Below are positions 2 to 4,063 of a stretch of DNA of 44,092 bases, in pieces; the first letter of the stretch is position 1; every line of letters begins with the position of its first letter. Below the pieces are notes generated by a model. That model was not told the origin of the DNA, ran no database searches, and saw nothing but the letters and a program-made list of their open reading frames with translations. The translations under genes were made by a program, and so were the position numbers. The DNA comes from Deltaproteobacteria bacterium (lineage in GTDB: Bacteria; Desulfobacterota; Syntrophia; Syntrophales; UBA2210), in contig JAFDAS010000022.1 in NCBI GenBank assembly GCA_019313695.1, forward strand, positions 1-44,092. The letters run 5' to 3'.

Positions 2-196
2 ATGCAAGAGCCCTGGAAGGAGCCCCTGCCCGACTTCATCGAGTCATTGTACAGGAAGCGTTTCAAGAAGGATCGTCCGGAGAATGTCAGGTCGGTCGAG
101 CGAATGGTGAAGGAAGAGAAACGAAAGCAAGCAGAGCGGAAGGCTCAAAAACAGCAAGAACAGGATCGCCAACAATCACCTGATTCGAGGCGTTAG
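2..196 (+). CDS. Hypothetical charged protein, possibly a C-terminal fragment
   Basis: Up to 64 residues are visible and the reading frame may continue upstream of the window, so this is probably the tail of a longer protein. The second half is extremely rich in Lys, Glu, Gln and Arg (roughly residues 25-64) and should form a charged helix; no enzyme motif is recognised. The stop codon TAG lies inside the sequence GTTAGAT (192-198), which I read as the boundary of the following integron-like cassette, so the last codons may have been altered by cassette insertion. The DNA is clearly more GC-rich than the LysE-type gene that follows. Function unknown. Confidence 0.35.
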   Translation: MQEPWKEPLPDFIESLYRKRFKKDRPENVRSVERMVKEEKRKQAERKAQKQQEQDRQQSPDSRR

Positions 197-211
197 ATTT
201 AGGAGAAAAAG

Positions 212-838
212 ATGATCGATAGTTCAAATTTCACTCTGTTTGTCGTAACTTCAATCGTTGTCATTCTAATGCCTGGTCCTGCGATGCTGTTTGTTATTTC
301 AAACGGATTAACAAAAGGTCCAAAAGCCAGTATTGCAGCTGCATTCGGGACTACTGCCGGTGTTTTTTTTCACCTATTTTGTGCCGCATTTGGATTGGCG
401 GTTATTCTGAAAACATCTGCAATTGCATTTGCAATAGTAAAATTTTCTGGGGCAGCTTATCTGATTTACTTGGCAATAAAAACACTGTTAAATAAAGAAG
501 AAATAATTAATCAACTAAGCGGGCATGAAAAAACGGGCAACTCAATTTTCTGGCAGGGTATCTTCATTAACATATTGAATCCTAAGCTTTCGATTTTCTT
601 TTTATCCTTTTTGCCTCAATTCATTGATCCCAATATAGCTTCTACCACATCACCAATTCTGATTTTCGGCATCATTTTCATGGCAATGACAATTATCATT
701 TTTATATGCTACGGCATTTTTTCATCTTTATTGCGCCAAAAAGTCCTAAGTAGCCCAAGGATATTAAAAACTATCAAATGGTGTTTTGCGTCTGTTTTCA
801 TGGCGTTGGGTGTAAGACTGGCTTTATCTGAAAAATAA
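212..838 (+). CDS. LysE/RhtB family amino-acid exporter
   Basis: This 208-residue inner-membrane protein has the normal length and layout of the LysE/RhtB superfamily, whose members export amino acids or homoserine lactone-like compounds. The N-terminal segment carries the family motif MPGPAML (about residues 20-26), an aromatic GAAYLIYL segment lies near residue 80, and an NPK motif near residue 123 is followed by FLPQF. About six hydrophobic segments are visible. The ATG at 212 is preceded by AGGAG at 201-205. It is the only gene of cassette 1. Its AT-rich codon use differs from the second LysE gene at 1037, so the two are not recent duplicates. The substrate cannot be told from sequence. 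Confidence 0.85.
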   Translation: MIDSSNFTLFVVTSIVVILMPGPAMLFVISNGLTKGPKASIAAAFGTTAGVFFHLFCAAFGLAVILKTSAIAFAIVKFSGAAYLIYLAIKTLLNKEEIINQLSGHEKTGNSIFWQGIFINILNPKLSIFFLSFLPQFIDPNIASTTSPILIFGIIFMAMTIIIFICYGIFSSLLRQKVLSSPRILKTIKWCFASVFMALGVRLALSEK

Positions 839-844
839 TTTGGA

Positions 845-903
845 ATCTAACCATCGCAGTCCACCCGACCGCTTGTGCCTCGCGACCGGTGACCGCGGCC
901 GTT
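845..903 (+). other. attC-like recombination site (interrupted)
   Basis: Box R'' is ATCTAAC (845-851). The spacer and stem sequences 852-900 can fold on themselves, with CGC-GTC-ACC paired to GGT-GAC-GCG and an unpaired C. The right box would be GTTAGCC, now found at 1012-1018. Only its first three bases, GTT (901-903), remain next to the stem because a 108-bp inverted-repeat element lies in between. Read instead without the insertion model, GTTGAGC at 901-907 also fits GTTRRRY. Confidence 0.5.
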
Positions 904-1011
904 GAGCCTGTCGAAAAACTCTAAACCCGTGGTTTTAGGGTTCGTAAGTAGTTGATTTTATTGCATGCGAAATGGACAAATTAGCCACTTTTGTACTTTT
1001 TCGACAGCCTC
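904..1011. mobile_element. Small inverted-repeat element (MITE-like) in the attC box
   Basis: The ends are inverted repeats: GAGCCTGTCGAAAAA (904-918) and TTTTTCGACAGCCTC (997-1011), matching at 14 of 15 positions. The element is flanked by GTT on both sides (901-903 and 1012-1014), a possible 3-bp target duplication. It has no credible gene. Removing it restores GTTAGCC directly after the attC-like stem. Confidence 0.5.
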
Positions 1012-1012
1012 G

Positions 1013-1710
1013 TTAGCCTTTAGTCAGGAGAAAACAATGAATATGGAAGTTTGGATTCCCTTTGTCTTCGCAACAACCTTGATACTGGTTATACCGGGCC
1101 CGACAATCATCCTGGTAATAAGCCAGGCGATAGCGCACGGTCGTAAAGCTGTATTACCGCTTGTTGTGGGTGTAACACTTGGTGATTTTACGGCAATGAC
1201 ACTTTCGCTTTTGGGGCTTGGTGCGATCATGGCATCCTCCGCGGCGCTCTTTTCTGTGCTTAAGTGGATCGGAGCCGTTTATCTCATATACCTTGGCATC
1301 AAGCTCTGGCGATCAAATCCAAGGAAACACGAAACCAGGCTTTCGGCGACAAGGACTTCAACGCAGTCCATATTCAAAAGCGCCTTCATCGTGACAGCAT
1401 TGAACCCTAAGAGCATAGCTTTCTTCGTCGCATTTCTGCCACAGTTTATCAGCACGCAAGGTGAAGCATTTCCACAATTTCTGTTTTTAGGGGCAACGTT
1501 TCTTTTTCTTGCGGCTTTAAACGCGACTCTATATGCCCTTTTTGCTGGACAGCTCCGTGATACGTTGCAGAATGCAAAAGTGCAGTGCTGGTTCAATCGC
1601 TGTGGTGGAAGTGCGCTTATCGGCGCGGGCATTGTCACCGCAACTCTACAGAGCTCTTCGTAATCGGCTAACCAAGCTAATTCAACCGCCGCGAATTACC
1701 ATCCGCGGCG
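1013..1710 (+). mobile_element. Integron-type gene cassette 2 (LysE exporter)
   Basis: The segment begins TTAGCC after G1012. After the gene's stop codon comes GGCTAAC (1666-1672), the exact reverse complement of GTTAGCC, followed by a GC-rich hairpin (CGCCGCG and CGCGGCG arms around 1687-1709). This parallels cassette 1. A right-hand GTTRRRY box is not seen before the convergent radical SAM gene, so the site appears truncated and the array seems to end here. Strictly, GGCTAAC deviates from RYYYAAC at one base. Confidence 0.5.
1037..1663 (+). CDS. LysE family translocator
   Basis: The 208-residue membrane exporter is of the LysE/RhtB superfamily. It shows the signature IPGPTIIL near residues 19-26, a GAVYLIYLG segment about residue 80 and an NPK motif followed by FLPQF about residues 123-137. 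The frame extends upstream to 965, but ATG 1037 is chosen because AGGAG lies at 1026-1030 and the preceding codons fall in a non-coding inverted-repeat element. It is the second of two tandem exporters in cassette-like packaging and shares family but only limited sequence identity with the first. The exported substrate is unknown; amino acids or homoserine lactone-like molecules are typical for the family. Confidence 0.85.
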   Translation: MNMEVWIPFVFATTLILVIPGPTIILVISQAIAHGRKAVLPLVVGVTLGDFTAMTLSLLGLGAIMASSAALFSVLKWIGAVYLIYLGIKLWRSNPRKHETRLSATRTSTQSIFKSAFIVTALNPKSIAFFVAFLPQFISTQGEAFPQFLFLGATFLFLAALNATLYALFAGQLRDTLQNAKVQCWFNRCGGSALIGAGIVTATLQSSS

Positions 1711-1713
1711 ATT
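1686..1713 (+). terminator. GC-rich hairpin after LysE gene 2
   Basis: CGCCGCG and CGCGGCG can pair around a short AT-containing loop. It may act as the terminator of the LysE gene and/or be the inner stem of a truncated attC site. The run of T after it is short. Confidence 0.4.
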
Positions 1714-3138: not shown

Positions 3139-4063
3139 AAATAAATGCGAGTATATAAGAACCGGTTGTACCGAGATTTACGGCAATATTGAGACCGCAA
3201 AGAACTTCAAGCGAGCTGTGTTTTCTGTGTTTTCCATTCAATACGGCGACAACAATAACTGCCGATAGAACCATGACAGGTATATACAAATAAAGGGCCT
3301 TGAATGGGACGTCTGCTTTAAGAGACAGAAACATGGCTATCCATGCAAGTATGGATACTGCCGAATAAATCGCGACTCCTCGTTTTATTCCCAGGCGAAC
3401 CAGCATGTTTTTCTTGCCGGCCTTTTTGTCTGCCGGATAATCAGGAAATTCATTGAGCAGGATCACATTGAATATGGTCATTCCGATCGGCAATGCAATC
3501 CAGTGGATGATAGAGTTTATATAACCTGTTTGTATATAGAATGCAGCCGCTACCGGAAGCCATCCATAGCAAAGCCCTATAATAAGCTCTCCCAATCCGC
3601 TCGATACCAGCCGGACCGGTTTTGTAGAATAGAAAAAACCGAAAAATAAACCGATGGCGCCGAGCAATATGGTATACGGACCGGTTTTGAGGCCAAACTG
3701 AAGGACAAGGCCGATAATGCCGGCAATTGTGATGGAAGCAAGGCTTGTCCACAGAGCGGCCCTGCGCGGGATAATTTCCGATGGAAACACCCTTGACCCC
3801 CCGGCAAACCTGCTCTTGTGTATTTTTTGGGATATTATATCTTCTTGATAGTCGAAATATTCTCCGGAGTGATATGTGGAGAGCATGATAAGAATTACGG
3901 CCGATATGCCGAGGATAAAGACGGGTGCATCGAAGGTGTTCTCCAATCTCCATGCCAGCAAAGCGCCAAGGATAAAGGGAAGCATGCCCACTGTATGGAA
4001 AGGCGGTCTCGACAGTTTAATCCAGCCGGATATCGTTGTTGTAATATTTACTGTTTTCGTCAT
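3137..4063 (-). CDS. UbiA family prenyltransferase (MenA-like)
   Basis: The 308-residue integral membrane protein is of the UbiA superfamily, which transfers polyprenyl chains onto aromatic or quinone precursors. It has about eight or nine hydrophobic segments and the two acidic Mg-diphosphate-binding regions: GEYFDYQED in the first third, and NEFPDYPADKKAGKK in the second half, the latter typical of MenA-like 1,4-dihydroxy-2-naphthoate prenyltransferases. A longer start at TTG 4096 is possible; ATG 4063 is preferred because homology begins just after it. Neither start has a clear ribosome binding site. It is downstream of hisS on the same strand. Menaquinone synthesis is a reasonable guess, but the acceptor is not proven. 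Confidence 0.75.
   Translation of the reverse strand: MTKTVNITTTISGWIKLSRPPFHTVGMLPFILGALLAWRLENTFDAPVFILGISAVILIMLSTYHSGEYFDYQEDIISQKIHKSRFAGGSRVFPSEIIPRRAALWTSLASITIAGIIGLVLQFGLKTGPYTILLGAIGLFFGFFYSTKPVRLVSSGLGELIIGLCYGWLPVAAAFYIQTGYINSIIHWIALPIGMTIFNVILLNEFPDYPADKKAGKKNMLVRLGIKRGVAIYSAVSILAWIAMFLSLKADVPFKALYLYIPVMVLSAVIVVAVLNGKHRKHSSLEVLCGLNIAVNLGTTGSYILAFI

What the first reader, a model, noticed from the sequence alone, without database searches (positions are those of the whole stretch)
192..1710. Two tandem LysE exporter genes packaged as integron cassettes without a visible integrase
The start of each gene unit (GTTAGAT at 192, GTTAGCC at 1012) is the exact reverse complement of a 7-bp box just after that gene (ATCTAAC at 845, GGCTAAC at 1666), followed by foldable sequence. 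That exact pairing is expected of a cassette that once existed as a circle. The first gene is also AT-rich against its surroundings. Exporters of one family in adjacent cassettes suggest selection for the function. Seen: the boxes and stems. Inferred: recombination history.
Basis: partly seen in the sequence, partly recalled or inferred. Interest (0 to 1): 0.6.

Follow-up and report, generated by a model that had tools for sequence, protein, structure and literature searches.

The report
Cassette site split by attC-targeting transposon

Summary
Cassette 1 (LysE1, about 193-902) is a real gene cassette: an attC covariance model built without the window finds one significant site in 44 kb (845-903, E 2.8e-4), and a Desulfobulbaceae MAG carries an 81%-identical LysE in a cassette array, the DNA similarity starting exactly at GTTAGAT and stopping exactly at the attC's GTT. 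Cassette 2 (LysE2) abuts that junction and has the matching end box, but no attC follows 1666 and none precedes 192. The genome's integron-integrase genes, on other contigs, look broken. New here: 904-1011 belongs to neither cassette. It is a 108-bp inverted-repeat element (MITE) lying between two GTTs, precisely in attC1's cleavage box. Relatives 72-93% identical occur in other Desulfobacterota; all ten ends in genome G032 abut attC. Full 1.84-kb copies encode an IS1182-family transposase; one lies in an attC at the same point. So this is an IS1182 lineage found mainly at attC, with MITE derivatives, mechanistically distinct from IS1111-attC elements and group IIC-attC introns. The cassettes are ordinary; the attC-targeting IS1182/MITE family is the interesting part, and its mechanism is inferred.

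The parts
2..196 (+). ORF of 64 aa, cut off by the contig start; its stop codon overlaps the cassette-1 start box. No family assigned; no attC detected in it.
192..198 (+). GTTAGAT, start of cassette 1 (recombination point G^TT)
   Evidence: sequence; DNA similarity to the Madre3 cassette begins here
212..838 (+). lysE1, LysE/RhtB-type exporter gene, 208 aa
   Evidence: PF01810, E 6e-39; 81% identical relative in a cassette array
845..903 (+). attC of cassette 1 (R'' ATCTAAC ... GTT)
   Evidence: covariance model R1, 24.3 bits, E 2.8e-4; pairing score above all 222 null sites
904..1011 (+). 108-bp MITE with 15-bp terminal inverted repeats (GAGCCTGTCGAAAAA / TTTTTCGACAGCCTC)
   Evidence: relatives in G032, G510, G492; ends shared with full-length IS1182-family elements
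901..903 (+). left GTT flanking the MITE
1012..1014 (+). right GTT flanking the MITE; single GTT in the unoccupied Madre3 attC
1012..1018 (+). GTTAGCC, start of cassette 2 and original R' of attC1
   Evidence: sequence; removing 904-1014 leaves GCGGCCGTTAGCC
1037..1663 (+). lysE2, LysE/RhtB-type exporter gene, 208 aa from ATG 1037
   Evidence: PF01810, E 4e-34
1666..1672 (+). GGCTAAC, end box of cassette 2; no attC detected after it
   Evidence: sequence; no model hit; next GTT at 1867
1688..1712 (+). short GC-rich hairpin CCGCCGCG...CGCGGCG, terminator-like, not attC
   Evidence: sequence; weak sub-threshold terminator-like Rfam match only; no attC model hit

Best explanation
The segment is the end of a decayed integron cassette array in a Desulfobacterota genome. 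Cassette 1 (LysE1 plus attC1) was acquired as an integron cassette; cassette 2 (LysE2) was joined to it at attC1's G^TT point and has since lost most of its own attC. Afterwards a 108-bp MITE, mobilised in trans by an IS1182-family transposase, transposed into attC1 at the R' box, leaving GTT on both sides. The same family, from full 1.84-kb IS copies to 78-111-bp MITEs, repeatedly and mostly in one orientation occupies the 3' foot of attC hairpins, so it is an attC-targeting lineage of a hairpin-targeting IS family. Because the IS end supplies GAGC after the left GTT, the upstream attC keeps an R'-like box and the element becomes the front part of the next cassette. Shown: the boundaries, attC1, the element, its relatives and where they sit. 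Inferred: transposition mechanism, how the target is recognised, and that attC1 still works.
For: attC model built without the window hits only 845-903 and all three expected sites around the Madre3 LysE. Window-Madre3 DNA similarity begins at CGTTAGAT and ends at GCGGCCGTT. Element relatives in G032 all lie between attC...GTT and GTT with different flanking cassettes: ten of ten ends abut attC model hits. In 395 phylum genomes GTTGRGNCTGTCGAAAAA occurs 37 times in 17 genomes, reversed pattern 0 times; 19 of 36 distinct ends abut attC model hits and 16 of 36 exceed every null site in a training-free score. Full-length copies of 1840 and 1838 bp carry an IS1182-family transposase, NF033551 274 bits against cut-off 270. 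G032 and seven of fifteen other IS-positive genomes have integron integrases above cut-off.
Against: About half of the IS ends are not at a detectable attC (G496, G532, G317, G475, G314 and others), so targeting is not absolute or several sub-lineages exist. Most of the attC sites at IS ends were used to train the model; five were not, two of those only at E 0.05-0.06. attC2 is missing, so cassette 2 rests on boxes and adjacency. No autonomous IS copy was found in the window's own genome. The GTT doubling could be a target duplication or a GTT belonging to the element.
Confidence: 0.82

Rival explanations
1. Plain tandem cassettes as the reader read them: the stretch 845-1018 is one long attC and nothing has been inserted.
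For: Outer boxes ATCTAAC 845 and GTTAGCC 1012 could be the ends of a 174-bp attC; the inner inverted repeat would be its arms.
Against: The complete attC fits 845-903 by model and by the Madre3 homologue, which has no such insert. The 904-1011 unit recurs in other genomes behind unrelated attC sites and shares its ends with full-length transposons.
Confidence: 0.04
2. The MITE copies are spread by the integron integrase as non-coding cassettes rather than by transposition.
For: Every copy at attC is bounded by GTT on both sides, the cleavage triplet of the integron integrase; integrases are present in many host genomes.
Against: The unit has no attC of its own: its circle would not carry an R''/L''/L'/R' hairpin ending at GTT (sequence). 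Full-length copies with the same ends encode a DDE transposase. Several copies lie outside detectable attC.
Confidence: 0.06
3. The elements target any hairpin foot or palindrome, as reported for IS1272, and attC sites are hit only because arrays are rich in hairpins.
For: IS1272 of the IS1182 family targets inverted repeats without sequence preference (PMC5678879). Some copies here are not at attC.
Against: The insertion base is always directly 5' or 3' of GTT at attC, mostly in one orientation, and the hairpin is kept rather than replaced. Terminator hairpins, far more common in a genome than attC, would be expected to dominate. This was not tested genome-wide.
Confidence: 0.3
4. Cassette 2 is not a cassette: lysE2 is an ordinary chromosomal gene next to which cassette 1 was inserted at a secondary GTT site.
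For: No attC after 1666; 63-72% relatives of lysE2 in the same order are chromosomal genes without attC boxes.
Against: Its start lies exactly on attC1's R' and is the complement of its end box. A 66% paralogue in the same genome (C33) ends TAATTGGCTAAC like the window's TAATCGGCTAAC and follows an attC model hit, E 0.008.
Confidence: 0.25

Closest known systems
Chromosomal integron gene cassettes / CALIN (clusters of attC lacking an integrase)
   Same: LysE1 with its own attC, cognate R''/R' boxes, array without linked integrase; CALINs are said to arise by integrase loss or off-target insertion (PMC8618304).
   Different: Only one attC is detectable on the contig, interrupted by a MITE; contig ends inside the array.
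IS1182 family (IS1272 subgroup), hairpin-targeting
   Same: Same transposase family; family members target palindromic sequences (PMC5678879).
   Different: IS1272 replaces the stem-loop and leaves no duplication; here the attC hairpin is kept, GTT is doubled, and the site is the attC R' box.
IS1111-attC group (ISPst6, ISKpn4)
   Same: Insertion sequences that target one end of attC sites (PMC11187229, citing Tetu and Holmes 2008 and Post and Hall 2009).
   Different: DEDD transposase with seekRNA and subterminal repeats, against a DDE IS1182-type transposase with terminal 15-bp repeats here.
Group IIC-attC introns
   Same: Mobile elements that use the attC stem-loop as target (PMC7923331).
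   Different: Retroelements, inserted at the TTGT/T motif in R'' on the bottom strand; no intron family matched the window.
MITEs flanking integrons (e.g. the 439-bp Acinetobacter MITE)
   Same: Short non-autonomous inverted-repeat elements associated with integrons (PMC3934969, abstract).
   Different: Those border whole integrons; these sit inside individual attC sites.

Membership tests
Integron gene cassette (cassette 1) | attC site with R''/L''/L'/R' structure at the 3' end | tested here: met
   Model hit 845-903, E 2.8e-4; score above all nulls
Integron gene cassette (cassette 1) | Cassette start complementary to its own R'' box and boundaries at G^TT | tested here: met
   GTTAGAT/ATCTAAC; similarity to Madre3 confined to these limits
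Integron gene cassette (cassette 1) | Found in an array in another organism | tested here: met
   Madre3 L028, attC hits on both sides
Integron gene cassette (cassette 2) | Own attC at the 3' end | tested here: not met
   R'' box only; no model hit after 1666
Complete integron | Adjacent integron integrase gene | tested here: not met
   None on the contig; damaged copies on C52 and C215
CALIN | Two or more attC sites without an integrase | tested here: not met
   One attC detected on the contig; contig begins in the array
MITE of an IS1182-family element | Short non-coding unit with terminal inverted repeats, many copies with different flanks | tested here: met
MITE of an IS1182-family element | Terminal repeats shared with an autonomous element encoding an IS1182 transposase | tested here: met
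   GAGCCTGTCGAAAAA / TTTTTCGACAGTCTC in the 1840-bp and 1838-bp elements; NF033551 above cut-off
MITE of an IS1182-family element | Mobilisation by that transposase | not testable with these tools
   Needs a transposition assay
IS1111-attC group | DEDD (IS110/IS1111-type) transposase | tested here: not met
   DDE transposase, PF13751 and NF033551
Group IIC-attC intron | Group II intron RNA structure | tested here: not met
   No Rfam match in the window

The most novel reading that the evidence does not exclude
A lineage of IS1182 transposases has evolved to recognise folded attC sites and insert at the G^TT cleavage point in a way that rebuilds the attC R' box, so that the IS or its MITE becomes a passenger of the downstream cassette and can be moved by the integron integrase as well as by its own transposase.
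Probability: 0.4. Interest if true: 0.75.

Novelty: new variant of a known kind. Interest (0 to 1): 0.55.

Why it matters
Two classes of attC-targeting mobile element came up in the papers searched here (IS1111-attC insertion sequences and group IIC-attC introns). A third, with an unrelated transposase, would show that attC hairpins are a recurrent target for mobile DNA, would help explain why cassette arrays break up in draft assemblies of these genomes, and offers a testable route by which transposons ride inside cassettes or freeze them in place. It also gives the hairpin-targeting habit reported for IS1272 a defined, sequence-marked target (attC plus GTT) in which to study it.

Tried and rejected
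Rfam search for known RNAs or introns in the window: no real match. Minimum-free-energy z-scores of the flanks did not discriminate attC. A first attC scorer had a null contaminated with real arrays and was replaced. The element was sought in plasmids and phages: no useful match; viral contigs gave six chance-like pattern matches without attC. Upstream ORF 2-196: no family. LysE cassettes sought in papers: none relevant. The idea that C33 repeats the whole GTTAGCC/GGCTAAC boundary pair was dropped: its GTTAGCC lies inside the attC model hit rather than at its end.

Full report
Observation. The window is the complete contig C113 (44,092 bp) of a 2.8-Mb, 282-contig draft genome. The phylum is Desulfobacterota by inference: the Desulfogranum mediterraneum contig NZ_AUCW01000038.1 appears among the 'same phylum' genomes as G240:C31 with the same length, 18,384 bp, and the same gene. 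Pairing of a GTTRRRY 7-mer with its exact complement 500-900 bp away is expected about once in a window of this size by simple counting and was observed once, so the boxes alone prove little.

Cassette 1. I built an attC covariance model from 16 sites, none from the window or from the comparison array; one, the published aadA1 attC, was written from my own knowledge and its presence in thousands of plasmid records confirmed at 98% identity. The model gives one significant hit in the window, 845-903, E 2.8e-4. A separate, training-free score of R''-L''-L'-R' pairing puts this site above all 222 GTTRRRY sites taken from non-integron DNA (24.0 against a maximum of 22.5). The best independent evidence is a Desulfobulbaceae MAG (Madre3, L028): an 81%-identical LysE lies between attC sites that the model also finds (1901-1954 and 2605-2663). 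Its DNA similarity to the window begins at CGTTAGAT and ends at GCGGCCGTT, exactly at the two recombination points. A 70% relative in Desulfogranum mediterraneum lies in ordinary chromosomal context without these boxes. Cassette 1 is therefore a horizontally exchanged cassette, in keeping with its low GC (0.362).

Cassette 2. LysE2 starts 18 bp after GTTAGCC and is followed by GGCTAAC, but the attC model finds nothing after 1666 and the next GTT is at 1867. Its 63-72% relatives in the same order are chromosomal genes without attC-like boxes. A second copy in the same genome (C33, 66%) ends TAATTGGCTAAC, against TAATCGGCTAAC here, and is preceded by an attC model hit (E 0.008). I take cassette 2 to be a cassette that has lost most of its attC, with moderate confidence. 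No attC precedes 192, so the left neighbour is not a recognisable cassette. The genome's integron-integrase genes look damaged: C52 reads in two frames (201 and 140 bits, cut-off 265) and C215 is cut by the contig end with a frame change; either could be assembly error. The attC model found no site on those contigs.

The element. Between the GTT that completes attC1 (901-903) and the GTT that starts cassette 2 (1012-1014) lie 108 bp with 15-bp terminal inverted repeats (GAGCCTGTCGAAAAA / TTTTTCGACAGCCTC, one mismatch). Taking out 904-1014 leaves GCGGCCGTTAGCC, in which attC1's R' is the exact complement of cassette 2's end box; the unoccupied Madre3 attC also has a single GTT. The element occurs once in its own genome. 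Five full-length relatives, 72-78% identical, occur in G032 of the same order, and three of 90-93.5% identity in G510 and G492.

Its targets. In G032 every GTT-flanked end, ten of ten, abuts an attC found by the model. The upstream attC sites and downstream cassettes all differ, so these are separate insertions. G032 carries two intact integron integrases (449 and 423 bits). A scan of 395 genomes of the phylum for GTTGRGNCTGTCGAAAAA found 37 sites in 17 genomes and none for the reversed pattern. Of 36 distinct ends, 19 abut attC model hits. Fourteen of these were in the model's training set; five were not (window, G032 C137, G510 C98, G164 C86, G236 C62), two of them only at E 0.05-0.06. Without any training, 16 of 36 exceed all null sites and 19 pass the 5% level, where about two are expected. 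Copies at attC nearly all have the same end towards attC; G164 C86 is the exception. Copies in G496, G532, G317, G475, G314 and a few others are not at a detectable attC.

The autonomous partner. Several copies run into a gene beginning MARYK.YDYD about 110-130 bp from the end; many are cut by contig ends, as expected of collapsed repeats. Two are complete: 1840 bp in G236, inside an attC with GTT on both sides and the next cassette start following; and 1838 bp in G272, GTT on both sides. The 518-aa transposase matches NF033551, IS1182 family, 274 bits against a cut-off of 270 (on a slightly truncated translation), plus PF13751 and PF05598. The window's element is thus best read as a MITE of this IS lineage. 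Seven of the fifteen other IS-positive genomes tested also hold an integron integrase above cut-off.

How it may work (inference). Some IS1182 members were said to target palindromes, and IS1272 was shown to insert at inverted repeats and replace them (PMC5678879). Here the hairpin is kept and the element sits at its 3' foot with GTT doubled, which may be a 3-bp target duplication or a GTT carried by the element. Because most copies begin with GAGC or GGGC, the left junction reads GTTGAGC or GTTGGGC, which fits the R' consensus GTTRRRY. If that site works, cassettes could still be inserted before the element, and the element would travel as the front part of the next cassette. Whether attC itself or any GTT-footed hairpin is recognised is open.

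Comparison and novelty. attC-targeting by IS1111-family elements (PMC11187229) and by group IIC-attC introns (PMC7923331) is known. I found no report of attC-targeting by the IS1182 family or of attC-specific MITEs in the open-access papers searched. Subscription papers and ISfinder could not be searched, so novelty is provisional. The cassettes themselves are ordinary. I rate the whole as a new variant of a known kind.

Noticed in passing
L009 (G000:C52) 420-1423: Integron-integrase-like gene split between two reading frames, next to ordinary metabolic genes and without a detectable attC.
   Followed up: partly
L010 (G000:C215) 1-1256 and 3198-3736: Second integron-integrase-like gene, cut by the contig end and out of frame; the other end of the contig has a tyrosine-recombinase tail followed by an ORF that looks to me like an IS91-type transposase (not tested).
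   Followed up: no
L039 (G000:C33) 362-1133: A second LysE2-type gene in the same genome (66% identical), preceded by an attC model hit and ending in GGCTAAC without an attC after it.
   Followed up: partly
L124, L137, L142, L145, L147 (G496): Seven copies of the inverted-repeat element with TCA|GTT on the left and mostly GTTAGCAA on the right, apparently in another repeated target rather than attC; its nature is unexplained.
   Followed up: no
L028 598-1232: The Madre3 cassette array upstream of LysE carries what looks like a HigB/HigA-type toxin-antitoxin cassette (by eye, not searched).
   Followed up: no
L086, L090, L092, L096, L097 (G032): A different dispersed repeat (GGTCATGGTGAGCCTGTCGAACCATGTA...) shares the GAGCCTGTCGAA word but not the GTT flank or attC context.
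   Followed up: no
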